Assembly: GCA_033297075.1 (NCBI GenBank)
Contig: MU858079.1
Coordinates: 124,001-188,000 of the forward strand
DNA from: Rhypophila decipiens
Lineage: Eukaryota; Ascomycota; Sordariomycetes; Sordariales; Naviculisporaceae
Direction of reading: 5' to 3'
Length of the DNA stretch: 64,000 nucleotides
Each line of letters begins with the position of its first letter. Position 1 is the first letter of the stretch. The notes beneath the pieces are model-generated. The model did no database searches, was not told the DNA's origin, and saw nothing but the letters and a program-made list of their open reading frames with translations. The position numbers and the translations under genes were made by a program. This document shows positions 1 through 41,033 of the stretch, piece by piece.

Positions 1-2621
1 GACACCCCGAGCTTCGTAAGGGCGGCGAGGGCGACATGGAGTTGAAAAGACTCACGGATCGAATCCACAAGGCGAGTATGACGGAGCGTGATAATCGCGA
101 CACCGCGACGCATCGCCGAAAGCTTTTTGCACTGTTGGCTTTGATGCAGATGGTGCCCTCTATTAAGGACTTTATCGAAGCTAAAATCTACGATCGCGAT
201 TTTCCCTTCATCATGGAAGAGAACGAGGAGTCGGACGGACCGTTTTACTGCATGTATAGCTGGCATGATCTGAGGAAAGGCGACAAACCCGGAGCCAGAA
301 AACCTATTCCATGCTTCTTCAAGTGGCCCGATCATCAAATCGAAGGCTTCAACACGAACCAGTGGCAGCTCTTGGCCCCTTACTTTGAGCTAGGCAGCCT
401 CAAACTATACAACTTCCAAGAGAATATCATTCTGCCATTCATTGAGGACACCAGTGACTCTCTGAAGGAACGTGAAAGCCTGGAAAGCGGATTCTCCGAT
501 GTCTGGAGGGTCAGGATTCATCGGGCTCATCACAATCATCGCCCAGTATCTGTAAGTGATTAGTGACCAGGGGCAGACGAAGACTGAGGGACCACAAGAT
601 ATCAAGACCTTTAACTAACCAAGATACTTTCAACGTCATCTGCAGGACGACGAAGCAGAGAATCCCTCATATGCCATCAAGCGACTGAAGCAAAATACGC
701 GCGAGGCGTTCGACAAGGAAGTTGAAGCCTTGAAGCGATTCTCCGACAAGGACAACCTTCATCTGATCGACCTCCTCTTGACCTATCACTATCGAGGCAA
801 GTACCATCTGGTATTTCCCTGGGCAGATGGAAACCTGAGCGACTTTTGGACCAAGCACCCTAGCCCGGACTTTCCGCGGCGAGACTGGAACTTTGTGAAA
901 TGGGCCGCCCGACAATGGCTGGCCATTGCTGAAGGGCTGCGGGCGATCCACAAGGCCCCCAAGAGGAACGAGACAAGAGACCCAAACGACCCCCGCATCC
1001 ATGGCCGCCACGGTGACCTCAAGCCCGAGAACATTCTCTGGTTCAGATACGGTCATCGGAAGCTCAAAGACCCTTGCGAATACGGCGTGTTTGTCATTTC
1101 CGACTTTGGTCTAACAAGCTTCCATCACAATGACACCAAAGACCAGGTCAGCCCGAGTCGTCTGGCAAGGTCTCCAACCTATCGCCCGCCCGAGTGCGAT
1201 GTATCCAAGACCATCTCCCAAAGCTACGATGTGTGGTCACTAGGCTGCATTCTGCTCGAGTTCGCCATCTGGTACATGCATGGGTGGAACGGTGTCGAGC
1301 AAGCATCGAAAAGACGTGCCAACGCCGAGCGCCCAGCTGCCAGTGCATCCGATACGAATTATGTGCGGGAGGACAAGTTCTTTGAGCTGACTGAGAAGGT
1401 CATTCGGATTGTGGAGGACGACGACACAATCGAGAGAGTGGCTCGGCTCAAGCAATGCGTGAAAGATGTGAGTGGCGTACTACTAGTATCCCATTGTGCC
1501 CATGAGTACTATGAATAAGTATTGACTATGGTATGCTTTAGGAGTTCACCAACTTGAGCAAGCAGGGAACTACTCGATTCTTCCATGACCTTCTCGAATT
1601 TGTGCACGACAAGCTCCTCCGAATGAGACCGGATATGAGAGCAATGTGTGACGAAATTGTGGCCAAGCTCGGCGAGATGCGGCAAAAGTGCGAGGCCGAC
1701 GAGGAATATTGTACTCGGATTGTTCCCAGATCCGACCGAACGGGAACCAACAACTCAGAGCTTCTATCCTCTTACATGACCACCATCCCAGAAGCAGCGT
1801 CTCTTGATGAGGACGAATCCGAAGTGCCAGAATCTTCGAGAAACTCGGCTGATATTCAGGATACATCGGACGTGACGATGAGGGGCAGTGTCAGAGATCG
1901 GCTGATCTCCCAGTCTCCTACACCCTATGATAGTACCGTGTCTTTGGAAGCCAGCAAGACGCATGTGGCTTCCAGGAGCAGTCTTAAACAACGACTGCCT
2001 GGCGACCAACAGCCCAAAAGTGCCGGAGAGATGATGCCCCCGCCGCCTTTACCAGGACGGAAACAGCCAAATAGGACTGACTCGAACGGAACAGGGGAGA
2101 GTTCCCCAAACAAGAGGGTCTCGTTTGCCGAGACACCAAATGTTGTTCACCAATACACTCAACAGTCCCCGGACATCTCTCAACAGCCTGATGGAATGGA
2201 CGACAGCCAGAAACTGTCAGAAAAGAACGCGGCCAAGGCCACAGCAATTGAAGATACGGGGAGCAATGCCACCGATATGCGCCTTCCAAGCCCGAAATCA
2301 AGCCCATCGACTGGGGTTGGACACGAAGACGGGCAACACAATCCCTCAGCCGATATCCGACCAGCCCCAATTGAGGCTCAAGGTATCCTATCCCGAGAAA
2401 GAAGCCCAAAGGTCAACCAGACAGAAGCCGATGGACAGCCAGGGCCCGGAGAATCATTAGCGCCTCCGCTCCAACAATCAACGCCTACATCTTCAACTAA
2501 TATGGAGCCAAGGCCTAGTGACACTGACCAGCAAGACGACAGACATGATGGACCGGCTCTGCGGACCGCCACAAGGGCTCAGCTGGTAGGAAGGCTTTGT
2601 AAGAGTCTATGGTGTTGTTAG
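1..2621 (+). CDS. Protein kinase K1 with long disordered tail (5' truncated by window edge)
   Basis: Three exons are visible: <3..551, 646..1467 and 1542..2621. The junctions are GT-AG and in phase, with a branch point near 613. The frame is open to the window edge upstream of the ATG at 36, and homology to K2 continues there, so the true start lies outside. Order: a helical pre-kinase module (HRRKLFALLALMQ, then FNTNQWQLLAPYFEL), kinase domain, then a disordered Ser/Pro-rich tail. Visible kinase motifs are a degenerate glycine loop (ESGFSDVW), YAIKRL with the ATP-binding Lys, RHGDLKPEN (HGD in place of HRD), DFG and SPTYRPPE. The protein ends KSLWCC, a terminal Cys pair that could be lipidated (inference). 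It is a paralogue of the kinases at 24862-27970 and 36273-38492. The substrate is unknown. The glycine-loop change may lower activity, but Lys, catalytic Asp and DFG are kept. Confidence 0.85.
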
Positions 2622-23440: not shown

Positions 23441-23790
23441 CTAGAAGGACTGCATGTCAGATTCACCGGGTACTATTCACTTATTCAAGACAGTTGAACT
23501 CACCAAATCCAACTCGGGCCCATGAAACCTAGACACAGAGTATACGTTATGTCTCATCTGTACATATCGTCATGTTAGACTCCTCTGCATGGACTAGTAG
23601 TGATGCAACATACGAAAGATGTAGTTTGCGGGACGGGACCAACCTCGACATAGAACCCATCATCCCCATACTGTCCCTTCAAGATCCTCAGCAAGTCCCG
23701 AGGCGAGAAAAGCTTGGTGTGGATTCTCTGTATGGTGCCTCCCCTTGCCTCGATCGGCAGTCCTGGTCTCAAGATAGCCGCTGTTACCAT
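23441..23790 (-). CDS. Small family protein D (YG-VEMRHN-Y motif)
   Basis: Three exons on the minus strand, 23790..23644, 23557..23504 and 23449..23441, predict 69 aa. The first intron uses a weak donor (GTTGGT); exon 2 starts exactly at the ATG of MRHNVY. The conserved core is SPRDLLRILKGQYG (predicted helix), then YGDDGFYVE|MRHNVYSV (two strands around an RHN turn), where the bar marks the intron. A short tail ELDL|SF follows. It matches small proteins A, B and C in the core and in the phase-0 intron between E and M. No signal peptide or membrane segment is visible. Function is unknown. It lies downstream of, and on the same strand as, kinase K2. Confidence 0.7.
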
Positions 23791-24861
23791 GGTTGAAAAT
23801 AAGTCGTGTAGCTGGTTTTGAGTTGAGAATAAGGGTCTGGAGGGAGCAGGAATGAAGTAAGTAGCTCTAAAGAAAGCGGTCTTGTTGTTTAGGAAATTGC
23901 AAGATATCACCAGCGGAGCGGAAGAGAGAATGGGTGAGGGTCGAGATGCAGGTATCCAGATGCAGGTACCTTCCTCGTGGATATAAGAAAGTCACCCTGT
24001 CCCTTTGGTAGGTGTTGCCTGAGAGCAACAAACATAGTTGGTTGGTGGAGGCCGACGCATGCGGCCGCCTTGACGTGGAATGTTTCGACCCGACATCAAC
24101 AAACATTGACGCGCAGAACGGCCAAAATAAAGCTGGCTGAAAAGCACAGTTTTATCAGCCTTATTCCCTTTTTATATTAGGGCGGGGAGCAATCAAATCG
24201 GACCAGTTGGCGTAGCTTCATCTTGTTGGTTCTTTCTGTTCAAGGCGTTCATGTGAGGGTGTTTGAGTTTGATGTTAGCCGGGAGAATGCATCGGGCAAG
24301 ACTTGATAGACGGCCAATCGTAGCAGGCCAAGCTTGCTACGATTGGATTTCGTATCTCCCAAGTAATGGCGGTCCTAATATACTATATATAACATTTACC
24401 AACTGGTTGTGTCCAAGTATACTACTAGTAGTAACTTGTACAAATATTCGAGGTAGATAACGTTTACGCATCAAGGTTCCAGCTTTTGGGGTTTTCAGAG
24501 CTTCATGTTCAAGTTCCCAGTCTTGGGGACGGCTTTCGAATAACAAAGAGGTTCAATATTATGTTCCCGCAGCTAAAGGAGGCTATGCAATGCAATTATG
24601 ATAGAGCAAAGAAAGAGAAATGCTGCCAGCACGAGCTAACGTTATGCAAGCCAGGGGTATCCAAATAAAAACAAATCCATTCCCGCCGCCCAATTAAAAT
24701 CCAGCCATTACTTGATCCCCAAGTGCTGTTCCGACATCTAGCCAAAAATGTTTTTATCCCCAGTGCCAGCCAACCAAACGCCTTTTCCATATGATGCGAA
24801 TACCTAACAACCAAAATCACCTCTCACATGCGGCTTAACCGCCCTTGCCGCTCTTTTCGTC
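23791..24861. other. Intergenic between small gene D and kinase K2
   Basis: No gene is seen. It holds D's promoter and the K2 3' flank. CCTAATATAC at about 24372 recalls the repeats at 2.7 and 4.4 kb. Confidence 0.4.
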
Positions 24862-27800
24862 CTATTTTTCCACGTCTCGATCAGTGGATGTATACAATGG
24901 CGAGACCGACTCTGAATGTTCTGCCCGTCGAGGAGACGAGAAGCAACAGCGAAAGAGCGGAACCAGCGAGCTGCGTTTACTTGACTTCTTGAGCTCCTGT
25001 TGGCGTGAAGAAGCTATCGGGCCACGGCGTTCGGTGACAAGCCCAGTGGAGTTCACATGATGCTGCTCAGTTTGAGGGACACTAGGGTTGTCTCCTGTCA
25101 TCATAGGCGTATCCTGGTCTGTAGACTCCCCATCGGTTTCCTGGGCGGGCTTTAGTGTGCCGGTTTGCGTAGGCACCGGTCCTCTAGCCGGAGAGGTCGA
25201 GTCGGTCTCCAAATTCAAGTTGGTTGGTGGGGGCGCAGTGACGATCGTTAGTATCTTGGGTTGGCCATCGTTCGCCTGCGAGATGGGACTTGTTGTGTCC
25301 TCAGCTGCTGGGGAGTTCTGTGGAGGGGGTGATACTGTAAGAATGGGTATTGACGCTGCTGACGGCATGGCGATGTGCTCGTCCTTTCTATGAGTATCCG
25401 CAGTCGACCTAATATCCGTAAATAGGTGGTTTATACCCTCCTTGAATCTTTCAGTGCGCGAGGTAGAACGAGACAGAGCCGCTGCGGCGAGCTGGGATGC
25501 TACGCTTGGAAAGTTATCCTCTGGACGGATTTTCGGTACGGTGTTCTGATGGATCCGCTTCTTCTGCTTGTCGGAATACGGCAGTGCGGAAGCGGCCAGC
25601 ATAGACAGGTCGGTTCGCGCACGGGGGCAGTCTGGATTCTGCCGCTCTGTGCAGTATCTGCTATTCTCTTCGCATGTCTTATGTAGGGCAGTCAACTTGT
25701 CCACAATCTTGCCGCACTTGGCCCTCTTCATTGGTCTGACTCGCAGAAGTTCGTTCTCGATAAAGTCGAGGAGGTCAAGAACAAAGTCCGAGCAGCGTTC
25801 GTGTTTATATAGCAGTTGAAATTCCTATATCCCAGCGTCATTAGTTCATGTTGTTGAAGGTCGTCAGGCACGCATGTATCCACTCACATCATAAACTGCT
25901 CGTTTTGCCTGTGCGCCCGTCTCGGTCCACGTCTCCTTCTTCTCGTCCTCTTCATGGATGATGTCAACATTGTTGAAGAACACATCCTCCTTGATTTCTC
26001 GGTAATCGTCCTCCACTCGACTCCTAGAGAACCGCTCAACTTCGTCCCAGCCGAGGACATACCAGGCAACGAACTCGAGCAGCACACAGCCCAGCGTCCA
26101 TATGTCGTAGCTCTGGTCAAAGCCTTGATCGATATCGAACTCCGGAGCACGATAAGTGGGCGACACTGGTGTGCTCTTACCGTTGTTCTGTCCAGAAAGC
26201 ATTGAGCCAGTGCGGTGGAACTTGCTCAGTCCAAAGTCGGAAATCTTTAGCACGCCCATGTTGTTTGTCTCGGTCTCGTGCGGGCGATAGGCACCAACAG
26301 GGCGGAACCATAATATGTTCTCGGGTTTGAGGTCCCCATGTCGACCGTGAGTCTTTTGTTGCTCATGCTGGGGGATGCCGAGGAACTCGCCCTTGTGGAC
26401 TTCAAAGTCGTGGATCGACTGCAGACCTTTGACAATACCCAGACATTGGGATGAGAACCACAGGGCAAGACCATGATTCCTCGGAAGCTCGGTTACGGTC
26501 GGATAGAGTTTCCAGAAGTCGAGAAGATTGCCGTCGGCACAGGGGAAAAGGAGATAAAATTCCTTGCGCCACTCGAATGTCACGAGCAGCTTGATGAGAT
26601 GGAGATGGTCCTTGGTGCTAAATCTCTTCAGGTTGGACACTTCCGCCTTGAAGGCTTCTCGATTGCTATGCCGGAGACGCTTCACGGCATAAAATGGGTT
26701 ATCCTTGTCCGAGGAGGCGTCATGAGAACAATTGTGATGGGCCGGATGTATCTTGACCTTCCATACGTCACCAAAGCCGCCCCTATTGCCCGAAGCAATT
26801 TCCTCGTCCTCAATCAGCGGCAGGACGGTTCCATACTCGAAGCTGTAGTGGGGGACCTCTGGCCTTGTTGTGGTACTCAGCACAAAGTATGGAGGGAGCA
26901 GCTTCCATTGGTAGTCGTTGAACACTTCGAGCATGAAGGCTGGCCATGTGGACACAATTGTGATGGGGGACAGGTTACCGTCCCTGCCCCTTCGTTGCAG
27001 CTGGCGAGTTCCTGGGTTTGGTCCGTCAGATAGGAGGAAAGGGAGGTCATTATCATGCAGGTTCTCGTCCGAGTCATCGATGAAACGGACGATGTCGGGG
27101 ACCCTTTGGATCAGCGCGAGAATAGCAAAGATCTTTCTCCGAGTGGTAGGGCGTGGGTCATGCGATCTCGAACTCGAACTCGCTGGCGGCGGAGTGGTGT
27201 GCCAGACCTGGTCGGTATACCAATCCAACCTGTCTGCAGCAATCGTTCTGGGTACCAAGCGTGCGAGCTCCTGGCGAACGCGGTCGCGTGTGACAATCCG
27301 GTTGAAGGCGTCATTGGGGAGATATTGGCCCTTGTCCCTGCTTGCCGAGACCTTGAAAGCCGCTCTGATGGCCGTCTCAAAGTCGACAGTCTTGGCTGCC
27401 CGGGGTGATGACGATAGCGATGGCGATGGCGAGTCATCAACAGTGAGCGACACCTGCGGGTTTGCCGTGCCATCATCTGTTTCCGAAAATGCGCCCGTCT
27501 GTGCTACCAGCTCGGCGGTCGACTTGCGAGATTCGCTGGGTGACCGCGTGTGAGCCGAGGTTTGAGGCGACCGGCGCGATGCAGAATCATCCTCCTCTGC
27601 CTGCTGCTTCAACCAGTCTCCGTACCCCTGGTCGTGGATGGTGCTGGGTGTCTGACCGCTATGGGACCCGCCTCCTTCCGTCGCCGGCCGGGACCTCCCA
27701 GCCGCTTGAGCGCTGAGGTATTCATTCCCCGGCTCGCCTGGGGAGAACTGCGTGTCCGAGCCCCACGCAACAGGGGCGTTGTTGATGGACGAGTTGCGCC

Positions 27801-27970
27801 TGGTGATCTAATGCATCGGAAGAGGTCACGAAAGAAGTCAGTCATGTTCTCAATTTTTGACGCAAAAAAGATGGACATACCGGGACCTCAAAGTCTGGTG
27901 TTTGTGGTATGGAACCTGGCGTTTCTGACTTGTCGCGTGGGGCCAACGCCTTTGTCCCGGGATCGGCCAT
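24862..27970 (-). CDS. Protein kinase K2 with long N- and C-terminal extensions
   Basis: Three exons on the minus strand, 27970..27881, 27807..25888 and 25824..24862, give 990 aa. The start at 27970 is the only ATG that reaches the long exon through a good intron (GTATGT...TAG). Residues 1-190 are disordered. A helical module (RDRVRQELARL, TRRKIFAILALIQRVP, then FNDYQWKLLPPYFVL) is shared with K1. Kinase motifs are GGFGDVW (about 372-378), YAVKRL (Lys about 406), RHGDLKPEN (Asp about 522), DFG (about 554-556), YRAPE (about 584) and YDIWTLGC. HRD is replaced by HGD; all other catalytic residues are present, so it is probably active on Ser/Thr. The tail is Pro/Ser/Thr-rich and carries VPLFRCCFSS, echoing the CC end of K1. 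Small family genes flank it on both sides. Confidence 0.88.
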
Positions 27971-29120
27971 GGCCGTGGGGTCTTTGGGCTTTACTCTCCA
28001 GTGACCGGCTAATCCGCGCGGAGTACCGGTACCCAGTGTGTAAGTGCTGCTCAGCTCGTGTCAATGTTTGCTGCTGGCTGGGTCGAAAAAAGGGGTTCAA
28101 TTCCACCTCACGACAAACATTGAATTGTCAATTGATTGCGGAACAAAAAATAGCGCGACACTTTACTTAAAGTAGAATCTCCTCTTCTGATTCTCAGAGC
28201 CTCGCGACAAAATTCCACCAGAAGAGGGGTTCATGGCTGATGGCGCAGCAAGGCTCGAGATTGTCGAGCTGGAGAGTGGGACGAGTGGTGAGGGAACCTC
28301 TGGGAGCCCGTAAGAGGCACAGGGGACGCCACAGCAGACCGAAACGGGTCGCGGGGTGACATTTGGGGGCATAAAGCCAGCATGGGCGTCAGTTGAAGGA
28401 GGGTTGGAAACTCCTGTGAGTCCTGTCAACTTCAACAGTCTGGAAAGTGTGAAGAGTTTGGCGGCAAGCAACGCCAGGGCTGATTTACCGGCGCACACCG
28501 GGGACGGGAATACGGGCAGCCTGAATTTTACGGTGTCGATTACGTATTGACCACCAGGAGGGTGCGAGTGTGGCACACCAAGGACTTCAGCTCTCTCTCC
28601 AAAGTGAGAAACTTCGTGTTTGCGCCCTCGTCACCTGCACCTCTCACACACCTTTTGCAGCTTTGGTGGCAAAAGAATATCAATCGATTGCCCAATTACC
28701 AGGCAAGCGCAAATATGATGCCCCTGATCCCAAATCCTGTTTGATGATATGACGATGGTCTCCTAAGGAGAGGTTCAAGACTTGTATTGATTGCTTTGGT
28801 TTCTTACCAGTCATTTGTCACGACCCATAGTCTCGGTTTCGAAGCAAGGAACATGGCACGAGCGGCCCTGTGTTTATACAACTTGCAGGGTTGGGTTTCC
28901 TTTTGGGGGTTCTTCGGCGTTCCCTAAAGTTGCTGTGGGATGACATACTTGTCCACTTCGGTTCAAGTGAAAATATTTTACCACAAGTCTCAGTTTACCG
29001 AAATAGAACCACAGCATAATACCACTGGCATCTGCCCCCTCCCGACTTTTGTCGTGTCCTTTTAGCATGTTGTCCCAAAAGCTTGATTGAATTACCTTTT
29101 GTCAAGTTAAGAAGATAGCA
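27971..29120. other. Spacer between K2 and small gene B, with a broken frame
   Basis: No intact gene is seen. About 28200-28550 contains a coding-like but interrupted frame, listed separately. The rest is promoter sequence for the divergent K2 and B genes. Confidence 0.4.
28200..28550 (+). pseudogene. Possible gene relic with an in-frame TAA
   Basis: One frame reads as protein-like sequence (DKIPPEEGFMADGAARLEIV), meets a TAA at about 28310, then continues in the same frame (TGRGVTFGGIKPAW, then SLESVKSLAASNARADL) to a stop at 28550. There is no good intron to remove the TAA. A CAA-to-TAA change, as RIP would make, is one explanation. The family is not recognised. It could also be chance. 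Confidence 0.3.
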
Positions 29121-29599
29121 ATGGATATCCGCAGAGCGTGAGTCTTAGCCTGCTATTTGTAATTGTTGGCTGTTGCCCATGCTGACATCGTCGACGTGAC
29201 TTCTAGCGCCGTTGCGCGACCGAACGGTCTCTCGAGAGCGTCTCGCCAGCCCCAGGTCATTGATGGCCGCATCGTGGATCCTCTCAAACTTGCTGCAGTC
29301 TTGGATCGCAAGTTTGGAAAAGGCGCCTACGACGTAGAAGTAGGTTAAAAAAATAAAAAAAGAAATCTTTTTCCTTCTCCTTTTCTCCCCCTTGTTTTCG
29401 GTCTTTGTCCATAGGGCGCTTAGAGGACTGACTGTTGTTGTGTAGATGCGTCATAACAAGTTTCTGGTTCGCGCAAGAGCACAATTGACGCAGGTATGTA
29501 CATACGTCTTGACGCCCTTACAGGGCGACTCCCAAATGCTGCGGACAGCCCTAACTAAAGTCTCTCCAGGATGAGATCCAAGAGTGCTCATATTGCTGA
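29121..29599 (+). CDS. Small family protein B
   Basis: Four exons, 29121..29137, 29207..29339, 29446..29493 and 29570..29599, predict 75 aa; every intron is GT-AG and in phase, and the last has a CTAAC branch point. The core is DPLKLAAVLDRKFG (helix), FGKGAYDVE|MRHNKFLV, then QLTQ|DEIQEC at the C-terminus (bars mark introns). Both intron positions recur elsewhere in the family: E|MRHN in C and D, and before [DR]EI in A and E. Six codons before the first intron make a tiny first exon, a reason automated annotation may miss it. No signal peptide or membrane segment. Function unknown. It is divergent from K2. Confidence 0.72.
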
Positions 29600-31172
29600 G
29601 ATCAATACGTTTTTGTTCCCTATCAACTAGATGGGAGGCTTCCTGTACTATTCACCACATGTTTTGTTCCATTTCCGGCGTGGAAAAGGTGTCCCTTTAC
29701 AACTTTTGTAAGATTGGCGAAGGACTGTTTACTACTTCCAAAACCGGTGTTTTGAGAGAAAAGCGGCAACGGCGACGTTAACTATAGACTGTGCAATTAC
29801 AACATCTCTTTTGTTACCTAATTATTTGTGTACATTGGATATCTTTTTAATTCTAATTCAGCTCGGTATTCTAGAGATGATCAAGTTTGCAAAACTTCGG
29901 AGGCTGAGTTTCTCATCGGCAACGGATTCTCCCGTTGCACCGACGCGCTGGAGATCATCCCACAGCGGAAAGTCCCCTAAACCCCTGCCGTTGTGGGAGC
30001 CTCTGACGCTGCCGCCGCCTCTGAGGAAGCAGGGGGGCTGCGCCTCAGCTGTGTTTCTGACAAGGGTCAAAATGGATTATGGGGCTGCCTCCGAGTTCCG
30101 ACTCCTGTATAAAATTAAGAACTGCACAGGATATTCGAAGTTTGCTCATGATCCAAGGGAACCGGTGATGGAAATACATAACTGAGGCTCACCGAGGTCA
30201 AGAGGCTTGGCACCGGCCTCATCCCCTGATATTTGAAGAGGCAATTATCCGCATTCAGTTCCTGCACATTTCCCAGGAAGTTGGATGCCTTTAGTTCGCC
30301 CAGTCTTATACACGTGCAAGTCTAATGACTGGTCTGCGTTATTCAAGTAACAGGAGGCATCAACTTCCCATCTGCCCAATGTTAATCCATCGTTGGAATT
30401 TTGTGAAATTACTTCCCAACATTGCAGCGCAGTGCCGCAGGTGTAAATTGCCCGGCCGGTGACATTCACCGAGAGTTTGATGACTCTCCTGTTACATATC
30501 CAACTCTGCTGTGCCCGCCTGAGCTTCACAACACGCGCACTGGCTGGTCTTGGTCAGACCGTAACGTTCCCCAAAAGATGTGGTTGCTGGGGCCGGCAAT
30601 CGGCATGACCTCCAAGCTGAGAATATCTTGTTTGAGTTGATATCATTGGCTGCCTATCAGATAGCAGGATAACACCCATTCACGTTTGGGGCCCCAACAA
30701 AGTGCTGTTTTTCCAATGCTTTGGTGACAGTATTTTGGAAGTTAACATGAACAGTTTCAAATAGTGTACCCCAAGGCAGATTCCACACGAAAATTCCATG
30801 GGAACGGGTTGCCTCCAGCCAATGAAATCATGCTCGGACGTGCACCAGATGAGCCATAAACAGCCCAGGCAGCTCGTGGCACAGCCGGTATCCTAGGCAA
30901 AGAACATCATCCGGTGTATATGCAAGGCTTCCAAGTAACCGGACATCCATCACCCCATACGCCTCCTAGTGCTCTTTGAAAATGGATATCATCAAGCCGG
31001 GCGACGGGAGCACCCTCCCGTCATGTATCCCATCTTCAAACCTGCCAGGGTCTTATTCTGATACCAATCATCATACCGGCATCATATTGTTACATGATTG
31101 AAAGACTGGCTTTACGTTGCAAATTCAAAGAACACTCAGCCTAGCATCATCATCATTCTCACCCTTATTGCC
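29600..31172. other. Intergenic, about 1.6 kb
   Basis: No convincing gene. A frame at 29878-30185 is open but does not look like protein. A 38-codon frame at 30982-31098 (MDIIKPGDGS...) starts with the same MDI as gene B and could be an upstream frame or unrecognised exon of gene C. Confidence 0.35.
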
Positions 31173-31767
31173 ATGCTCAGCAATCCTGTCGTTGAGGACG
31201 GCCATTACACGTACAAGCTGCACACGCGGGATGTGCCTCCCAGAGTGCTTCGGCGAGAGCTTGAGAGGCTTCTAGGGTCCTCCCAGTGGCATGTGGAGGT
31301 GAGTTGGACTCCATAGTGCTGTGGATTACACAATTCATCGGGAACAGCAGTGAAACGACAATGGGACTGGAACCTCAGGGCCAGGCTAACAGCTTGTCCA
31401 CATACAGATGCGCCACAACGTGTACAACATTCAGTCCTGCACGGATTTCGATCTCGTACGTATCACCAAAACAGACAAACGAACAAATCGATCTGACAAA
31501 GTGGCCCAACAACAGAAAGACCTCCTCTCCAACTGCCAGAACGGGTCCGCAACTCCGCGAACCTTTAGTGCCCAAAATCTTCGAGAACGAGCCTTGAAGG
31601 CGAGCACACCTCGACGGCTACCCGACACTCCCAAGACCCACTTCGTGACGCTGAAGTCTGAAAAGGTCAACGACAGTCACGACGTGACAGTGACAGACAC
31701 TGACACAGAAGGGTCATCAAACAGTCAAGACCGACATACGGCCGAGCCACCCATTCAGCTACATTGA
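31173..31767 (+). CDS. Small family protein C with longer C-terminus
   Basis: Two exons, 31173..31298 and 31408..31767, predict 161 aa. The intron has a GTGAGT donor, GCTAAC branch point and CAG acceptor, and lies between E and M of VE|MRHNVYNI as in B and D. The core is VPPRVLRRELERLLG (helix) and LGSSQWHVE|MRHNVYNI. Unlike its relatives it continues for about 105 polar, Ser/Thr/Asp-rich residues. A strong donor (GTACGT, 31456) follows TDFDL, at the place where D has an intron. Removing 31456..31515 (60 nt, frame-preserving) would give a shorter form, so alternative splicing or intron retention is possible. Function unknown. Confidence 0.65.
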
Positions 31768-32127
31768 AAACAAAGAGAGAAAATAGGATATGTTTATGGT
31801 TCATGGTTCATGGCAAACGACAAAGGGGCTCTATCTTGAGGATTTCATAGACTTTTGGTGCAAAAGGTGTTTGTTTTCTTTGCTAATTTTGTCTTTGGCC
31901 ATCCTGGAGGCTGTTGGAATTCAAGTTATACCCGTTAGATACCACTCGTCTGAAATTATCGATTTCTGTAAGCAACATCAGTCTTGATGTCTTTTTTTCA
32001 ATGCAACCCGGGCAGTTTGCTACGAAAGCCACATTAAGGTTCATCTCGTGGCACGGTCAAATTTCACCTGTGAATAGAACTACATGTAGTTTCAGTCCAG
32101 ATGAGGCATTTCCAGACTCAGTACGGG
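31768..32127. other. Convergent spacer
   Basis: Nothing is recognised between gene C and the CorA-like gene. Confidence 0.4.
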
Positions 32128-34150
32128 TCATACGAGTGGAATGCTCTCTTCCCCCAGCAGCCCGTCATTCCTTGCCTTCCTCAACTTCCAAGCCTTCGAG
32201 TGCCGATAAACAACAAAATACCACCACGAGAGCATCGTTGCAGATGTGGCAAATACCGTGAAGAGCACGTATATCCATAGCCACGAGGAAACAACCTCGT
32301 CAGACGTGTTATTAGGTCCGTCACTGGATCCGCCTGGCGACCAGTTGAAGAATGTCATTGAAAATATTGACTGGTATCAGTGTCAGGGTTAGTCAAAGTG
32401 TTCAAAGACCACGCACGCATGGGGACAGGAGTGGGATTGGGGACTAACAGCGAAAAATGTTCCCGGAAGAAAGACCATGGTGACCACGGCGATGGACCGC
32501 ATGTGTCTCGAGTCTCGTCTCATTTCCAGCGCAATCTGGACGTTTGATTCTCCGTCGGCCTTGTTATCGTATCGTTCCTTGTCAGCTCTCATTTTTCAAG
32601 ACTACTCGGAAACAAATCAAGATGCAACATCTAAACACTTACCCATTGCGTCGCCATGGCCATCCCGTCTACGCGCATCGTACAGTCCCGAATCTTGTCA
32701 TCATACTCGTCCACAATAGCCTGAATCCGGTCCTTGATCTTTCCACCTGCTCTCCGCATATTCTCCCTGAAAGCCTCCGGATCACCGCTAAACGACGGCT
32801 TTCCACCCGCCGCCGGTGAATCTTCTATGCCTTGCTGCTGCCTTGACGGAGTCCTGCTATCCTGAATGATTTCAACCTTTGGAGGGGGTGGGACATGCAT
32901 TACCGAGCTAGTCGACTTGCGTCTAGGATTCATACTTGAACCGGCCAGCGAGGCAGGGCTCAGCTCGACACGTCTCCTGTCAACCCTGTCCCTGGACCTC
33001 TGCCGCCGACGTCTCTGCTCCTCCATCTGCACGGGGTTCAAATTCTCCACGTCCAGGTACCTACTCCTGCCGCCCTGGAATCCGACCTCCTCTCTGAATC
33101 TCTGGATTGACAAGGAGTCAACTTCGGATCTCGGCCGTCTCGACGTGTCACTTCTCGAGTCCTCATCCTCCTGAGACCTGCTGCTATTCCTCCTCCTCCT
33201 CCTCCTCCTCGGCGCTTTGTTGTCGGTGCTCTTGATGTAGAGGACTTTCTCAAGCTCGTCCGCGTGGGCAGCCATCTTGGCGAGCTGGGTGTTCCAGCTG
33301 ATGAGCTGGTTCCTCAGGTAGGCCGTGTCCAGCCACGAGTTGCGCTTCTCAAAGTTCTTGCGTTCCGAGTCATCTTCGTCGCCGGTCCCATCCATGTCCG
33401 AATTCTTGAAGTCGAGTTCGAAGATTTTGGTCTCGATCTCGTCGATGGTGTTTTCCACCAGGTGGACGTGCCTCGACCTCTCCAGCTCGGCCACGATGCC
33501 CGGCATCAAGAGCGGGTGGGCTGCTTCATGCGTGGCGAAGGACAGGCGCTTGAGAATCTCCTCCTCTACTGCAAGACTGCACCCAAACGCAATGGCAAAG
33601 GTGAGTCCGCAGTGGGGGAAATAAGTGCAGGTTAGACCGAGATCCATGTTCCAGGCGTTGGTGGTGCGGCAGTTGGTAACGTAGGCCGGATATCCACCCA
33701 TCCTGACCTCTGCGCTCGAGAAGACTGGTATGTCGGCTCGGCTTACCGCCCGGGCAATCGATCCGTGCGTGTAGAACTTGTCGGTTATCAGGCGGAAGGT
33801 AGGCTGAGAGAAGGGGAGTCTGCGGAGTGTCTGTCGACCGCCAGCCATGATATGTGCTGCAGGGGGACCTCCATCACCCGCTTTTTCATCCATTGATGGA
33901 AAGGTCATTGCCCTCTCTGGCTTGGTCCGGCCGGGTAGGGACCTCTCGATCCGTTCGAGCCATTCGTCTGTTTTGGCCTTCTTCAGCCCACCCAACGAGG
34001 GCTCACCTGAACGACGTGCAAGACTAGATTTGCTGTCAGTTCCGAGTTTGGGTTTGGAGGAATTATCTGATATTCACATCAAGATGAGACCAGATGGGGT
34101 CGCGTCGTCGATGGGCGGATACTCCTGGAATTCAAGTCAGTTTCCTTCAT
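32128..34150 (-). CDS. CorA-like membrane protein with two C-terminal helices
   Basis: Proposed exons on the minus strand are 34150..34123, 34066..32643, 32577..32449 and 32370..32128, giving 607 aa. The first tiny exon is tentative (donor GTATCC); the first internal ATG is at 33908. The large soluble part has an N-terminal alpha/beta domain (TNAWNMDLGLTCTYFPHCGL, HPLLMPGIVAELERSRHVHLV), a coiled coil, and a very basic Arg-rich stretch near the middle. The end has the fungal CorA-like signature: MRRDSRHMRSIAVVTMVFLP, PGTFFA then SIFSMTFFNW, and a second hydrophobic helix (WLWIYVLFTVFATSATMLSW). The exact GxN magnesium-channel motif is not visible, so transport is unproven. It sits inside the kinase/small-protein block, convergent with C. 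Confidence 0.78.
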
Positions 34151-35820
34151 GACGGGGATCCGAGATCTGACATGTATACCACTTCAAACCAATCCTTCCA
34201 ATCGTTCTCGGTCTCGAGTGTCCATATTAACGGTTTCTGGAATGCAACAACGAGATGAGATGTCAGTCATGGGATAGAGGACCGGGGCTCTCTCATGGGC
34301 TTGTTTACCGCGTCATGCTCCAATATCCGGACAATAGTGGTGAACTTTTCCTCGTATTTGAAAACTGTGTCCATGTCCTTCTCATTGATACCCGTGTTAT
34401 CACGTGCCCAGTCCATTTCCAGGATACTATATTCTTCTTAAGGAGATTTTCATGTCAATCGTTTGCCTTGAATGTCCACGACGGCACTTTTGAGTTGATG
34501 TTGGTGGTGAAACATTACATGCGCGAAACACGCTTCCCGATCATACCCGATGGAGGCTCAAATGGCCCAATGATGGATGTTCTAGTTGATAAGTAGCGCT
34601 GTTGGGACTCAGCCACCGTTCAGGGGTGCCTGGGCGAGAGCCCTGCCACCAATGGTAACATTGGATCTAGGGCAGTTGTGCCCGGTTTATATGTGCTTGA
34701 GCGCTCTGGGAAGACAATGGAAATACGAACTTGTAACTTGAGCATGACAGAAAAGAGCGAACAAACAAACGACGTTGTTGTGCACTTCAAATAATCTCCG
34801 TCATGTTGTCTCTTTGCAATTTTATTGACGTTTACCTCCTGGGCCTGGCCTTAAATCTACATCGCTCAGTACCCCGTACTCGGGTTCTTACCTGACCCTG
34901 CTGGAATTACCCCGCCATGCCATAGGACACAGCTCACAGCAGCAGCCCTGATCCTTCGTGGTGATGGACGTGCTAAGTGTCAGGGACCAGCTACCATCTG
35001 CCTTCAGGGGCCCTCTCACATAATTTACATTCGAGATATCCACCTTTTATATGCTGGCTACCCGCCAAGTAGTATGGCAGTCCATAGCTGTCTACGTGAC
35101 ATAAGTTTCCCCATCGTTCTTTAACTTGCAACTATGACGAGAGGCTCGCGGCAGAAACGCGACGTCGGTGATTTACAGTATAACCGATCAACGGGAAATT
35201 CACTCTGCACAGCCCCGTCACAAATGAGGCAGACCACCAGCAGTTTCATGGTTTCTATGCGGGGCAAAAGACGAAGAAACCGCCTCGAAGTCAGCCCAAA
35301 CTACTACCTGGTACCTATACGACGCCACTGACACTTGAGCGCTGATAAATCTCAGGCTCACACGTACAACATGAAGTCTCTTTGGTGCAACTTGGGCGCA
35401 CCTTATTTCTGTCGGGCCTACCATAGGTTGTAGGGGCGCTGACTACTTGGTTCACTGCCAATTGGCGGTCAGTTCGACAGGTGGCGGGACAGGGGATTGA
35501 ACACAAATGATGTGTCTCGCGACTGGACGACTTTTCTTCTTTGGGCTTCAAGCAGGCGTTATCAGATATATAAGTAAGAGATAGGTCCGAGGTCAAAAGA
35601 AGCCATTCTCCCAATCTCCCTTGGCTATAAAGCTTGGTCTTTTTGCGCATTTTATCTCACTTGGTGATGATATATTGGCTGACCGACGTCGACCTTGTTC
35701 CGTTTCCTAGTACCATAGTACAACAGGCCCCCGAGTCGCCAGCTTGAACGTTTCGCGCGCAACCCCCAGCCCAACAAACGCCGGGGCATTTTGCAACCTG
35801 AACACGTTCAGTCGGTCAAG
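34151..35820. other. Intergenic, about 1.7 kb
   Basis: No gene is seen. Short frames are present but none with family resemblance or good splice structure. Confidence 0.45.
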
Positions 35821-36106
35821 ATGGCCGCCACCGTCTCAGTCAGGGCGACATATGGGGAGGACAACGCCATTGCTACCTATTTGGCTAATATCTTTGGATA
35901 TGGACAATGCTCCGTCATATGGAGGCGAGCCCGGTACATCTGTAGGATTCCCCGGTATTTGACTGCTGTGAGTGCTCTCCGCATATCGTTGTGAAGGGAA
36001 ATGCATATGGTCATGTCCGCTAACCATCATATGGCATGGACTCGGACAGCGCGAGATTCAGGGACTGCAAGACGCCGTCCGCGGCTCCCACTACAGCACC
36101 GACTAG
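35821..36106 (+). CDS. Small family protein E (divergent member)
   Basis: Two exons, 35821..35967 and 36050..36106, predict 67 aa. The intron has GTGAGT, a GCTAAC branch point and CAG, phase 0. The MRHN tetrapeptide is replaced but the pattern is kept: FGYGQCSVIWRRARYICRI aligns with YGDDGFYVEMRHNVYSV at Tyr/Phe-Gly, Val, Arg and Tyr. The intron falls in YLTA|REIQGL, the same place as QLTQ|DEIQEC in B and KLSE|DEIRDC in A, which supports common ancestry. It lacks the E|M intron, as does A. Cys- and Arg-rich for its size. Function unknown. It converges on kinase K3. Confidence 0.62.
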
Positions 36107-36272
36107 GGATACCGAAGGACTTGCGCACTTGGCTTGATGTTCAGTTGGTTCATGTTATGGGTACGGAGTATTCATGTCACGGTTTCCACGAATACCTTGC
36201 ATTTCCATGTATGTATAAACCCGAGGCTATTGGGACATTAAGGATTGTATTTTTTTGGAGCCATGACTTGCA

Positions 36273-38492
36273 TCAAACATGCAACTTTCCGACCTGGGCT
36301 GCCAACTCGTCCATCTTCTCCAGGTCCTCGACCGTCATCGAGGGCTGTCTGGGACCGTTGTACGTAGGCAACTTCCTTGACCCGAGATACCTCCTAATCG
36401 TGTCCTTGGTCACGGGGTTCAGCTCGGCCTCCACCGCCACGCCTCTTATCAACGTCCTCGTCTGAGGTGCGGCCTTGATGGCATAGTCGGTGTTAGAACT
36501 CATGCATTTCCTGTACATGTCTTGAAAGTCCTTCCGCAGTGGAGAGGACAGTGTTCGCTTGCCCGTTTCGTCGTCTTGGGAGAGCACGATGAGCATCTCC
36601 TGCTCGACCTTGTCCAGCACATCGTGGACGAACTGCGTGCAGTGGGGCAAGCCATGAAGTTTGACGAACCACTGTTTGTGCACATGTCAGGTCTTGGTGT
36701 CATGCCATCATTGTGCGCGTCATGTGGTCAAACGTACCTTGGAGACCTCCTCCTTCACCTGGGCCACATTTCCCGTCCCGCCCCCAGCCATGTCAAACTC
36801 CTTGAGGTCGAAAAACACATTACTCCGTGCTCCCGTGATGTACGGCGTCAGCCTTTCTTCCTCAAACTCTTCTACCAGCTTCCAGCCACCCAGCAGCCAG
36901 GTCGTCAACTCGAGAAACAGGCATCCCAAAGTCCAGATGTCAAAGGCACGCGACACCTTTCCCCCTTTGACCTCGCATTCGGGCGGTCTGTACCCTGGCG
37001 CGCCTGGTATCTTCTGGCCGGGAATGTTGGACCTGCTCACGTCTCTATTGAACGACGTGAGCCCCATGTCGGAGATGACCAACAAGCCCCGTGCATCCTC
37101 GCCGCCGACGTCCGTGGGCGACCGGAACCAGAGAATGTTGTCCGGCTTGATGTCCCCGTGTCGCCCATATCTCTTATCGTCCGGCGTCTCGAGGTGGGTG
37201 TGCTTCGGCTCGTGTATGGTATCGACCGCCGTCATGATGCCCGACATCTGCTTGCTCACCCACCGCACCGTCTCCAGGTTGAACGGCGGCCGAGGCTCCT
37301 TGTCCTCCCAGTACTCGTCTAGTGCGCACTCGGCGCACGGAAACAAGAAGTAATAGCTGCCCTCGAGCGTAAACGTGGACAGCAGCGTCACGAGGTGATC
37401 GTGCACCAGCCCGCTGAATCGTTTGAGGTTGTCCAGCTCGTTCCTGAACGTCTGCTGGTTGTCCTTGGTCGCCGAGACTTTGAGCTTCTTGAGTGCAAAG
37501 AGCTCGTTGTTGAGGTGGATGGTCTGCAGCACGCTCCGGAAACCGTGGCTCGTGGGGTGCATCTTGACCTTGCTCACATAGCCATAGCCACCTTCCCGGG
37601 TAGACTCCTCGCTCGGCCGCATTTCCCGGCTGTCCTCGTGCCACCAAGGAAGGAGGGTGCCGGCCGGGAGGTCTCTATGCCGGGCGCGGCCATCTTTGTC
37701 CAGGTCAAAGTATGGCGTGAGCATACGTCTTTGCTCGTTGTACATGTAGTTCTTGAGCGTTTCCTTCATGCTGTTGAAAGAGACGAGAGGATTGGACAAT
37801 GTCCGGGACTGTACTTCACTGCGCCAGCTTTGGTTGAGGGTCAGGTTGATGGGTAGGGCCATGTCTGACTCTCCCTTTTCCACAAACTGTGGGATTCTAT
37901 GGCTTTCCTCGCAGAGGATCAGCAGCGCATAGATGCGCATGTAGTGGCTCTGATCATCCGGCGAGGATATCTTGGGCGGGTGTATTGCATCGACCAAATG
38001 ATCAATCGTGATGGAGTTTCCGAGCTTGAGATCCCCCGCGTCGAGATCCCTTTGTAGTTGGGCCCTCACTCGCTCACGGGACAGGATGTGCCGGAGGACC
38101 TTGAGGGTCCAGAACCCTATCACGCCGCCGTCTGTTGTCTTGATGACGCAATGTCGGAGTAAAGTGTCTAGGGGCCGGTCGCAGTCGAGGATGATGGGAA
38201 GACCTTCTGCGTCGAAACGGATGGGCGATGTTGGTCGACTTGGAGGTTGTGAGCCCAAGCTTGCATCGTCGGCATGGCTCGGGTCGAAATACTCGCTGGC
38301 AGCATCGTTTGTGATTGCGTCGAGGCCATATTCCTTTTCTACTATAGTGATGTTCTTTTCTGATGTCCTTTCCAAAGTGCCGGTGGGGGCTCGGACCAAG
38401 ATTTGGATTTCAGGGGGAGATGGAGGAGGGGTTTTAGGGCGGCCAAGCGGCTGAGTTCCATCATGTCGAGGACTGGAGAGGCGGGGAGCCAT
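36273..38492 (-). CDS. Protein kinase K3 (HGD, DMG variant)
   Basis: Two exons on the minus strand, 38492..36738 and 36671..36273, give 717 aa. The start is the ATG at 38492; the frame is open slightly further upstream but without an ATG. It shares the pre-kinase module with K1/K2 (SRERVRAQLQRDL, then NEQRRMLTPYFDL). Kinase motifs are GGYGYV (about 301-306), LFALKKL (Lys about 335), RHGDIKPDN (Asp about 446), DMG in place of DFG (about 475-477) and GYRPPE. It is more divergent than K1 and K2 and has no long disordered tail, ending soon after the kinase domain with a helical segment. The DMG change does not remove the metal-binding Asp. Small genes E and A flank it. Confidence 0.87.
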
Positions 38493-40550
38493 GTTGCTTC
38501 GGAAAACAGTGAGATGTTTCGACAAGTCTGCTTTTGGTGACGATTATCATTGGGAGCAAGAGAACCGAGCAGACAACAGTCAGAACAACCACGGGAAGCC
38601 TCGGGGATTATAACAAGCAAGGCCATCACGAATGCAAACAAATGTTTCAGCAACGCATCTTCATGATAAAACAATGAGAGCCCTATCGCCAAATCCCAGG
38701 CATTTCCGGACCAAGAAAGGCGGCTCAGTCTTTGGAGCGGCTACTGCCTGCGTCGTTGCAATCTCTCACGTCTGAGTGTCGCCGTGTCGGTGTGGCACAG
38801 AACGGCCGCTGATTGGCCATAAATCCAAAAGCTTGCCTACATAACCAGGCAGGAGGGTGTTTTGGGGGGTGATGGTTTGTTGGGAACAACTTATTACACG
38901 CTGGACAACACCTTCTCCCGCCTTTTGTGTAGTTGAGCCTCAAACTTGGGGGTCTGGTGTCCCGCTTCAGGGTCAATGGACCCCCCCCCCCCCCGGGCAG
39001 TGGAAGTCGCCCCCCAATGCAGTGCAGTCGCGTGTCTGTCGCTACTCGGTGAGCCTTCTGGCTTTGCTTTCATGATGCCGCTCTCCCGACCGACAAGTCC
39101 TTCCGCCATCCCCGGCCAACAGCCAGCGTCCCCGGCAGAGTGGGTGATTGCAGCAGGTCTTTCGGCCGAGGAAAGGGTCAAGAATTCGTTACCAGCCATA
39201 ATAATGCGCTGTTTAGCAATGTGGCTACTCGCATTCTCGGGAAAGTCGACGAAATGCTCGCAGCTCGCAGCGGATAGACGCAGATTGCATGAACCACTGG
39301 TGATCCCGTGAAGCTCATGAGATTTGTCATCAGAATGAGCTCCAAGTTGACGACTTGCAAGTGATTGGGGCCCTGCTGCCTAACTAGATATCTCTCTCAT
39401 GTATTCCATCAGCAACGGTTTTCTCGGCACTTGAGGCGAAGAGATGATGTGGGTGTGGGACGCGGAGGCTATCGCAAGACGGTGTGGCGGAGTGCAGATT
39501 GTCGGCAAGTTGGACAAGAAACCTAGAAGATGTCGGTCGGTCATGTGGCAGGGCACTGCAGCTCTGCTGAGGCTGAGCTCTGCCTGAGGCACGGGCATAC
39601 TTGGTTCCTTCGTCATTGATGAGTCGCGTGGGATTTCCAGGCAAATTGCAAGAGGAGGAAGTGATTTGACCGTAGTAGATATTGCATGTCTCAAGAGCCG
39701 TCTGGTATCGTCACTATCGTGGGGGAGGCAGGTAAAATCTGAGGACCGCCTGTTACCTAGGCTGCCTCTGCTAGAAGCCTAGAAGTTCGGGGAAAGCTAA
39801 CCACATGCCGCGAAACAAATGCACTGTAACGAACATGCAAGAAAATGCCTCTCAGCAGCGCAACTGAGACCCAAAACGAGTGCATAGCTGAGACTATTGT
39901 TTAAATCGTCAAGAGATCAGCTTGGGTCATATATATGGGTCTCGATAGCTCTGCATGCCGTATAAAGGTCTAATCGGATGTTGAGAGGCCGGATCCGCCG
40001 ATTTCCACCGGCCTGGGCCCCCGAATTCGGCAAATTCAGGTCCCAACTTCCGGGCCAGCAGCCGAAAAAGGATATACCAAGGGACCGCATACCAGTACAA
40101 CCGCCACGCCACCTCACAACTGACATGTCCTGTGGCGAGTAGTCGTACTTTACTCCTAAGAAGCTTTTTATTTGCTGATGTGCACTTTTTTCAGGGAATC
40201 TTCCAGCCACAATGACAAAGTCCCTGCAGGCTGCCTCGTGACATGTAATTACTGTACGCCGATCGGGAAATCTCGGCCCTGTGGATGACTCGAAACGATA
40301 CGTCACCTGTTCCGGTGTTAGTACCGCCTCTCACTCCATGCCAGTAGAGTACCAGGCAGCATCAGCCATATACCGTACTCTATGAAGTAAACGGTATTCC
40401 CTCGATATCGTGCAGACGTGCCTATATAAAGCTATGGAGCTTCTTCTTCTGTGTCCTCATCACAAAGTCATTCATCATGCCTTAAAAACCCCACCCCAGC
40501 CCAGTTCGCGGCCCCTTTCTTTCGGTCGGTAGCCCATCGTTCAGCGGGAT
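38493..40550. other. Intergenic, about 2 kb
   Basis: No convincing gene. A 14-nt poly(C) lies at 38981-38994. An open minus-strand frame at about 39917-40306 lacks an ATG. Confidence 0.4.
38981..38994 (+). repeat. Poly(C) tract, 14 nt
   Basis: A homopolymer run whose length is likely to be unreliable in assembly. Confidence 0.8.
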
Positions 40551-41033
40551 ATGACTGCCCAGTCGGAGCCTTCCACCACGAACCGAGGACCTGCTAACGG
40601 CAGCCTGGGCCAGGCCGAGCCAGAGGAAGCAGTTCTCAATCTGATACCTACAAGTACTACTTCGGACCCCTGTTCCCGAGAGCTCGAACAGCTCGAAGCC
40701 GATTCTAAGGAGGGTCAAAATAGGCCTAGAATCATCCCGCCAGCAAGCATAATGTCTGGTACCACGCAGACCATCCCAACACGATGTATTCGCAGTCCAA
40801 GGCGTCTCTTGGAGGTGCTCAAGACCAAATATGGAGAAGGCGGGTATACTGTTGAGATGCGTCACAACGTGTACACCGTCGTCACGCGGGATGGCAAAGG
40901 GAAACTCTCAGAGGCAAGTCTTGCCGAGCTGGGATGGCCGTGACTATACCATCTCAACCATGAAACCGTTGTGAGCATCAAAATGACAAAGCTAACATTC
41001 ACAAATGGTCAGGACGAGATACGAGATTGTTAA
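40551..41033 (+). CDS. Small family protein A, GC-AG intron
   Basis: Exons 40551..40913 and 41013..41033 predict 127 aa. The first 70 residues are a disordered, acidic leader (QAEPEEAVLNL). The core is SPRRLLEVLKTKYG (helix), YGEGGYTVEMRHNVYTV without the E|M intron found in B, C and D, and KLSE|DEIRDC at the end. The intron has a GC donor (GCAAGT), a GCTAAC branch point at about 40991 and CAG. I prefer it because its product matches the last exon of B in sequence and intron phase. If the GC donor is not used, the frame ends at 40943 with KLSEASLAELGWP (130 aa). Function unknown. Confidence 0.68.

What the first reader, a model, noticed from the sequence alone, without database searches (positions are those of the whole stretch)
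23441..41033. A family of five tiny genes interleaved with HGD-type kinases
Small genes D, B, C, E and A (about 67-161 aa) all fit [YFL]-G-x3-[YFWC]-x-V-x2-R-x3-[YF] right after an amphipathic helix; four of the five contain MRHN. They also share phase-0 introns: E|MRHN in B, C and D, and before [DR]EI in A, B and E. The order is D-K2-B-C-CorA-E-K3-A, so each kinase is flanked by small genes. I know of no described family with this motif. Repeated pairing with paralogous kinases suggests a regulator/kinase or self-recognition (allorecognition) module. The functional link is inference from co-location.
Basis: partly seen in the sequence, partly recalled or inferred. Interest (0 to 1): 0.88.

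Follow-up and report, generated by a model that had tools for sequence, protein, structure and literature searches.

The report
Tiny partner genes beside fungal kinases
In a filamentous fungus, a previously unnamed family of tiny genes sits beside an unusual class of protein kinases at many places in the genome and in related fungi, which suggests that the two proteins work as matched pairs.

Summary
The window is Rhypophila decipiens. The five small genes are real: A and E equal annotated proteins, and the shared phase-0 introns are confirmed. A sixth gene, F, lies 2.3 kb before the window, near kinase K1. Relatives occur in three classes of Pezizomycotina (44 proteins at E<=1e-3, A and E included), without a convincing Pfam or PDB match or a paper found. 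The kinase link survives three tests. (1) In all 10 other named species present in both my lists, small gene and kinase share a contig. (2) Seven divergent small genes of similar exon plan lie near seven other kinases of this genome; three came from a whole-genome search. (3) Two kinase subclades match two small-gene subclades. MRHN marks only one subgroup. Eighteen of 28 kinase loci have no detected partner. The kinases are non-RD and mostly keep catalytic residues. Best reading: dedicated small regulatory partners of non-RD kinases. Binding, regulation and allorecognition are untested.

The parts
23441..23790 (-). small gene D: exons 23790-23644, 23557-23504, 23449-23441; 69 aa, MRHN; same strand, about 1.1 kb downstream of the last K2 ORF
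   Evidence: homologs P0005 and P0006; the last 9-bp exon is the least certain
24865..27807 (-). kinase K2 (HGDLKPEN, DFG): ORFs 27807-25867 and 25824-24865; exact exon ends not determined
   Evidence: Pfam Pkinase 1.9e-18; K3-family HMM 1.2e-100; catalytic motifs
29121..29599 (+). small gene B: exons 29121-29137, 29207-29339, 29446-29493, 29570-29599; 75 aa, MRHNKF
   Evidence: homolog P0002, and P0018 and P0035 whose models read into the intron before MRHN
31173..31767 (+). small gene C: exons 31173-31298, 31408-31455, 31516-31767; 141 aa, MRHNVY
   Evidence: third exon chosen by homology to the FDL-x-x-LL-x-x-C ending of relatives
32131..34073 (-).
   Evidence: no Pfam family reached its cut-off for three ORFs
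35821..36106 (+). small gene E: exons 35821-35967, 36050-36106; 67 aa, divergent, no MRHN; convergent with K3, 0.17 kb apart
   Evidence: equals annotated protein P0004; leave-one-out 14.3 bits against 10.5 in 483 kb of shuffled DNA, but only 3.7 bits with the MRHN-only profile
36276..38492 (-). kinase K3 (HGDIKPDN, DMG): ORF 38492-36723 plus last-exon ORF 36686-36276
   Evidence: Pfam Pkinase 1.2e-18; 112 homologs at E<=1e-10
40551..41033 (+). small gene A: exons 40551-40913, 41013-41033 (GC-AG intron); 127 aa, MRHNVY
   Evidence: equals annotated protein P0001, QBC37DRAFT_419070
1..2618 (+). kinase K1 (HGDLKPEN, DFG), 3' part; starts before the window; its small neighbour F is at C35:121411-121729 (-), outside the window

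Best explanation
The small genes encode a family of single-domain proteins (predicted beta-alpha-beta-beta-alpha) that are dedicated partners of a fungal family of non-RD protein kinases. Partner genes stay near their kinase genes and diversify with them, so the most likely mechanism is that the small protein binds its own kinase, or the kinase's substrate complex, and regulates it in trans as a regulatory subunit, inhibitor or adaptor. Because the kinases lack the HRD arginine that normally couples activity to activation-loop phosphorylation, a separate switch protein is a plausible need. In the C35 cluster three kinases and six small partners have accumulated, presumably by duplication. Shown: the family, the gene structure, the proximity and the matching subclades. 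Inferred: binding, regulation and the direction of the effect.
For: Shared phase-0 intron positions; A and E equal annotated proteins. All 5 strict MRHN-pattern hits of the genome lie in the kinase cluster, 0 for the reversed pattern. K3 homologs and small homologs share a contig in 10 of 10 non-Rhypophila named species present in both lists; tags are two apart in Venustampulla (06832/06834) and Cudoniella (g3743/g3741); naive product of contig/genome ratios about 10^-16.5 at an assumed 30 Mb. Small genes beside four further kinases, leave-one-out 24.8-33.7 bits, best control 7.4. A whole-genome search with one of them found three more loci at E<=0.15, each 2-6 kb from a listed kinase segment; the C6 protein hit C128 and C62 back. 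Leave-one-out for all seven: 23.9-47.9 bits against at most 10.8 in 483 kb of shuffled DNA. Kinase clades {C128,C6,C62} and {C298,C388,C24a} are mirrored by small-gene clades. A related K3 gene model (P0054) ends in an E-like stretch. Small protein predicted as b-a-b-b-a.
Against: No physical, expression or genetic evidence. Only 10 of 28 kinase loci have a detected partner; flanks of the others were read only partly, and two loci (C152, C21) were not read. Most named species have no small hit. With the MRHN-only profile C62, C388 and C24a score just 10.6-12.3 bits (shuffled maximum 10.2) and E 3.7. Small-protein and kinase distances correlate in some sets (10 species pairs r=0.57, p=0.003; 7 own pairs outside the cluster r=0.65, p=0.024) but only marginally when cluster pairs are added (r=0.22-0.29, p=0.05-0.09). 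No kinase fusion was found in the database search; the one fused gene model may be an annotation merge. The small-protein model has moderate confidence (pLDDT 74) and no convincing structural relative.
Confidence: 0.7

Rival explanations
1. The pairs are allorecognition or self-protection modules: the kinase is a cell-death or immune effector and the small protein is its recognised ligand or antidote, as in gene-pair systems such as het-B.
For: Tight gene pairs, a multi-copy cluster and an apparent local rearrangement of E relative to K3 in a sister species. [quoted passage not shown] het-B pairs a small PII-like protein with a HET effector (PMC10890737, passages).
Against: F is 99% identical and E apparently identical in another R. 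decipiens assembly. The MRHNVY core is strongly conserved across classes, although that is partly a search bias. Pfam found only kinase domains in the main ORFs of K2 and K3.
Confidence: 0.2
2. Block duplication with hitch-hiking: an ancestral kinase plus small-gene block was duplicated and the genes stayed neighbours without a functional tie.
For: K1 and K2 are close relatives, three kinases lie in one cluster, and matching subclades would also arise from block duplication.
Against: Contig sharing holds in Sordariomycetes, Leotiomycetes and Dothideomycetes; within this genome orientations differ (convergent, divergent, tandem) and E seems inverted in a relative, while other neighbours in the window look ordinary.
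Confidence: 0.15
3. The small ORFs are misread terminal exons of the kinase genes rather than separate genes.
For: In C128 and C38 the small gene is on the kinase's strand and upstream; P0054 reads into an E-like segment.
Against: E/K3 and the C298, C24a and C388 pairs are convergent on opposite strands; A and E are annotated as separate proteins; A to F each have their own start, stop and introns.
Confidence: 0.04

Closest known systems
het-B of Podospora anserina (Bh HET-domain effector with adjacent small PII-like Bp; PMC10890737, passages read)
   Same: a small protein gene kept next to a larger effector gene in Pezizomycotina, with the pairing recurring in distant species and relative orientation varying
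   Different: the effector here is a kinase, not a HET protein; the small proteins are mostly shorter; the only hint of a PII-like relation is a sub-threshold Pfam match of A to DUF2179 (E=0.008), which I recall as a GlnB-like family; no incompatibility is known here
Trans-acting small kinase subunits such as Cks or Mob proteins (recalled, not tested)
   Same: a small protein proposed to regulate a kinase in trans
   Different: no sequence or structural match to any such protein appeared in the searches; I recall no gene pairing with their kinases
Non-RD immune kinases of plants and animals (IRAK, XA21, EFR type; PMC8463890, passages read)
   Same: arginine of HRD replaced; IRAK4 is among the top fold matches of the kinase model
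   Different: the Foldseek matches are generic kinase matches (CDK2 ranks first); Pfam recognises no receptor domain in 60 relatives
Unclassified kinases expanded in Fusarium (PMC6001611, passages read)
   Same: lineage-restricted filamentous-fungal kinases outside the standard groups; Fusarium relatives of K3 exist
   Different: whether those are the same family was not tested, and no small partner is mentioned in the passages read

Membership tests
Protein kinase superfamily (K2, K3 and the K3-like set) | Pfam Pkinase domain | tested here: met
   K2 1.9e-18, K3 1.2e-18; 60 of 60 aligned relatives match PF00069 (60 of the 112 were given)
Protein kinase superfamily (K2, K3 and the K3-like set) | catalytic residues (VAIK lysine, HxD aspartate, DxG) | tested here: met
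   present in K1-K3; 111 of 112 relatives keep HxD (one HGN) and 111 of 112 keep DxG (one DMW); the VAIK lysine is at least 90% conserved in 60 aligned relatives. Seven of 26 own-genome loci have another residue at the catalytic-loop lysine
Non-RD kinases | no arginine before the catalytic aspartate | tested here: met
   108 HGD, 2 HSD, 1 HTD, 1 HGN of 112; 26 of 26 own-genome loci without arginine
Non-RD immune kinases | role in innate immunity | not testable with these tools
   sequence alone cannot show it
KA1 / AMPK C-terminal kinase-associated domain (small proteins) | sequence similarity to KA1 or AdenylateSensor | tested here: not met
   neither is among the 20 Pfam families listed for 43 members at E<=1; hhalign with the own-genome KIN1 and SNF1 domains (single sequences) scored 9.2 and 8.0, below the best of 60 random kinase windows (17.2) and 60 shuffles (14.0); positive control P0053 98.5%
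KA1 / AMPK C-terminal kinase-associated domain (small proteins) | KA1 fold | tested here: inconclusive
het-B type gene pair | HET-domain effector | tested here: not met
   only kinase domains in the main ORFs of K2 and K3
het-B type gene pair | small protein gene adjacent to its effector gene | tested here: met
   small genes about 0.1-4 kb from the nearest kinase ORF read
het-B type gene pair | incompatibility between haplotypes | not testable with these tools
   needs population data and crosses
MRHN small-protein family (defined here) | profile match plus phase-0 introns at two homologous positions | tested here: met
   not every gene has both introns: A, E and C38 lack the first and F lacks the second

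The most novel reading that the evidence does not exclude
An undescribed two-gene signalling system of filamentous fungi: a family of non-RD kinases, each with its own matched small b-a-b-b-a partner encoded next door, co-diversified into several specificity classes, multiplied in clusters, and acting as intracellular immune-type or self/non-self sensing switches.
Probability: 0.3. Interest if true: 0.95.

Novelty: categorically new. Interest (0 to 1): 0.84.

Why it matters
Some filamentous fungi carry dozens of unclassified kinases (about 41 per Fusarium genome; PMC6001611, passages). A small partner encoded beside kinases of this kind gives an immediate handle: which protein to pull down, delete or co-fold. 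It also yields a family that gene prediction may easily miss (one proposed exon is 9 bp) and that the 2025 Pfam copy does not recognise. Matching kinase and partner subclades make specificity testable by swapping pairs. If the role is immune or allorecognition signalling, it would add a kinase-based branch to the HET, NLR and gasdermin systems.

Tried and rejected
KA1 idea: the b-a-b-b order and a P..L..E....L pattern recalled KA1/AMPK C-terminal domains. Profile comparison against the genome's own KIN1 and SNF1 domains scored below random and shuffled controls, so it was dropped.

Fusion (Rosetta) search: a query of P0010 followed by part of K3, scored on the P0010 part, gave 20 candidates and none at E<=10; lengths outside about 320-1015 aa were not covered. 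The small HMM over the 112 kinases gave no match above noise (best E 0.046, P0062; no MRHN or RHNVY in any), but reading P0054's tail showed an E-like segment.

Distant loci: viral contigs and GTDB genome contigs gave 6 and 5 pattern matches, none confirmed. No collection of fungal genomes was on hand, so neighbours in other species rest on contig lengths and locus tags.

Kinase loci without a detected partner: C363, C110, C42, C86a-e, C108a-b, C115, C24b-c, C195, C79, C63; no hit above 10 bits with the wider profiles, 11.4 at C86d and 11.2 at C63 with the MRHN-only profile (shuffled maximum 10.2). C152 and C21 were not read. The whole-genome search with the C388 protein also gave C43:13876 at E=1.05; no kinase lies on C43, so I treat it as noise. 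The kinase HMM found nothing in the 3.1-kb loci L059, L062, L063, L064, so that check does not separate C43 from C62, C6 and C38.

Literature: 'MRHNVY/EMRHN/RHNVYN' gave one unrelated paper, seen only in the listing; the listings and the passages read (abstract only) hold no description of the pair. That speaks only for the held open-access library.
Full report
Identity. The window is C35:124001-188000 of a 45.7-Mb assembly in 408 contigs. A protein search returned gene A exactly as 'hypothetical protein QBC37DRAFT_419070 [Rhypophila decipiens]' and E exactly as QBC37DRAFT_419066. R. decipiens is in Sordariales, Naviculisporaceae.

The five genes. D, B, C, E and A are real genes at the given coordinates. 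Every intron of the models has GT-AG sites except one GC-AG intron in A, which the annotated protein implies too. Introns directly before MRHN (B, C, D) and before [DR]EI (A, B, E) are all phase 0. C ends best with a third exon KDLLSNC..., matching the FDL-x-x-LL-x-x-C ending of relatives, which gives 141 aa. A sixth gene, F (84 aa, MRHN, same first intron), lies at C35:121411-121729 (-), 1.7 kb upstream of the first K1 ORF and outside the window. The DNA pattern AG-M-[RS]-H-N-x-[YF] occurs five times in the whole genome, all in this cluster, and never in the reversed control.

A real family. A profile of the five genes found 53 proteins at E<=10 among 125 candidates, 44 of them at E<=1e-3, including the window's own A and E. 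The named sources comprise 18 species besides Rhypophila (16 of them at E<=1e-3), among them Leotiomycetes (Venustampulla, Acephala), Dothideomycetes (Lentithecium) and Sordariomycetes; four lineages were looked up, the others are recalled. In 43 aligned members M-R-H-N is invariant and the core reads HxKxVxSPxxLxxxLxxxxGxxxFxVEMRHNVYxI. The search needs exact five-letter words, so that invariance is partly an ascertainment effect. A Pfam scan of the 43 listed no family for more than 2 members, best E 0.0049 (EnY2). Three relatives read into the intron before MRHN (P0018, P0035, P0048), which supports that intron position in other genomes.

Link to kinases in other species. A search with K3 gave 112 proteins at E<=1e-10 out of 7,993 scored candidates, a capped set. 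Ten named non-Rhypophila species occur in both lists, and in all ten a small gene and a kinase are on contigs of identical length: Apodospora peruviana, Naviculisporaceae sp. PSN 640, Venustampulla, Cudoniella, Lachnellula hyalina, Dactylonectria macrodidyma, Ilyonectria robusta, Lentithecium, Madurella mycetomatis and Acephala (one of its three small hits). The contigs of Cudoniella and Lachnellula are only 54 and 56 kb. Locus tags put the genes two apart in Venustampulla (BP5553_06832 and _06834) and Cudoniella (G7Y89_g3743 and _g3741). The other 8 of the 18 species have no kinase row, so they cannot be tested. A naive product of contig-to-genome ratios at an assumed 30 Mb is about 10^-16.5; it assumes independence and is only a guide.

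Link within the genome. K3 finds 30 segments at E<=1e-5 (a lower bound), which I group into 28 kinase loci, 26 of them read. Scanning 19 stretches that hold the 23 read kinases outside C35 gave small genes near four: C128, C298, C24a and C388, with introns at the two family positions. Each scored 24.8-33.7 bits when left out of the model; the best control, with F's own hits set aside, was 7.4. These four were sought only near kinases, so whole-genome searches followed. The C128 protein hit three new places at E=0.005, 0.04 and 0.14 (C62, C6, C38), lying 2.1-5.6 kb from a listed kinase segment. If about 0.8% of the genome lies that near, the chance is about 5e-7. The C6 protein hit C128 and C62 back, the C298 protein hit C24a, the C38 protein hit only itself, and the C388 protein gave itself plus C43 at E=1.05, taken as noise. 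Leave-one-out scores of all seven are 23.9-47.9 bits; 483 kb of shuffled kinase-locus DNA never exceeded 10.8; E scores 14.3. With the profile trained only on MRHN proteins C128, C38 and C6 still score 23-27 and C298 15.4, but C62, C388 and C24a only 10.6-12.3, next to a shuffled maximum of 10.2, and E 3.7. So C62, C388, C24a and E rest on similarity to the other divergent members, on gene structure and on position. In total 13 small genes lie near 10 of 28 kinase loci. Controls of 82-91 kb (window outside the cluster, its flanks and a few other held loci; not random regions) gave nothing above 8.0 bits with the same profiles.

Co-diversification. In the kinase tree C128, C6 and C62 form a clade (0.83), and C298, C388 and C24a form another (1.0, with two proteins of other species). 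The small proteins form the same two groups (0.89 and 0.87, kinase tree). A random assignment would reproduce that 3/3/1 partition with probability 1/70. Distance correlations agree for 10 species pairs (r=0.57, p=0.003) and for the seven own pairs outside the cluster (r=0.65, p=0.024), but weaken to r=0.22-0.29, p=0.05-0.09, when C35 pairs are included, where it is not clear which small gene belongs to which kinase.

The kinases. K1-K3 have HGDLKPEN or HGDIKPDN, a VAIK-type lysine and DFG or DMG, so they look active. Of 112 relatives, 108 read HGD, 2 HSD, 1 HTD and 1 HGN; none of the 26 own loci has the HRD arginine. Seven own paralogs (C363, C110, C298, C388, C86b, C63, C128) have another residue at the catalytic-loop lysine, three of them being paired kinases. 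A model of P0054 (pLDDT 82.5) matches kinases in general. P0054 itself, from Rhypophila sp. PSN 637, ends in an E-like stretch that follows E's frame into its intron. In the window E is on the strand opposite to K3, so E has apparently been inverted between the two relatives while staying next to K3; whether P0054 is a true fusion or a merged gene model cannot be said.

The small protein. P0010 is predicted as b-a-b-b-a with pLDDT 74 overall and 81-88 over residues 11-70. The conserved E-R-H-N-Y residues sit on and around the hairpin between strands two and three, which suggests a binding site there (inference). No solved structure matches convincingly. A KA1-like origin was tested by sequence and failed.

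Arrangement. E/K3, C298, C24a and C388 are convergent, about 0.2-0.6 kb apart; C128 and C38 are on the kinase's strand, upstream; F/K1, B/K2 and A/K3 are divergent, about 1.3-2.1 kb apart; D follows K2 by about 1.1 kb; C62 and C6 lie about 4 kb from the nearest kinase ORF read. Changed orientations with kept proximity argue against simple hitch-hiking.

Interpretation. The evidence shows a conserved gene pairing. That the small protein binds and regulates its kinase is the most economical explanation but is inferred. Allorecognition remains possible; het-B is the closest work-alike (passages of PMC10890737), and non-RD kinases are tied to innate immunity elsewhere (passages of PMC8463890). Against a hypervariable locus, F is 99% identical and E apparently identical in another R. 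decipiens assembly. I call it categorically new because neither the small family nor its pairing with these kinases turned up in Pfam, the PDB or the held papers; the general idea of a small protein regulating a kinase is of course known.

Noticed in passing
P0054 (Rhypophila sp. PSN 637) C-terminus versus window 35821-36106: The K3 relative's gene model runs into an E-like domain on the same strand, whereas E and K3 are convergent here: an apparent local inversion, and possibly a kinase-small protein fusion.
   Followed up: partly
window 40914-41012: GC-AG intron in gene A that the annotated protein P0001 also implies, which hints at transcript support.
   Followed up: no
gene A, window 40779-40880: Sub-threshold Pfam match to DUF2179 (E=0.008, cut-off not reached), which I recall as a GlnB/PII-like family; interesting because het-B's small partner is PII-like, but far from proof.
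   Followed up: no
C42:58797-59024 (L072) and C42:62965-63193 (L019): Two weak two-exon candidates (7.3 and 9.1 bits, within noise) flank the C42 kinase; one carries RDHYEIWPPRPL, resembling exon 2 of the C24a partner.
   Followed up: partly
C86:156318-156509 (L026:319-510): Open frame with FRHTVYTIKS upstream of the C86d kinase, 7-11 bits only; perhaps a decayed or unusual member.
   Followed up: partly
C363 (12.7-kb contig): A kinase closely related to K1 and K2 on a tiny contig, with the catalytic-loop lysine changed (HGDLIPEN) and DFA in place of DFG: a possible decaying copy.
   Followed up: partly
L012 and L013 (C35:104001-123000): F lies among ordinary genes: an aldo-keto reductase by Pfam and, by eye only, a Zn2-Cys6-like factor and a transporter-like ORF; no second small gene above 8 bits between 104.0 and 121.3 kb.
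   Followed up: partly
window 32131-34073: The ORFs called CorA-like contain LPGTFFA and hydrophobic stretches but gave no accepted Pfam match when read ORF by ORF.
   Followed up: partly
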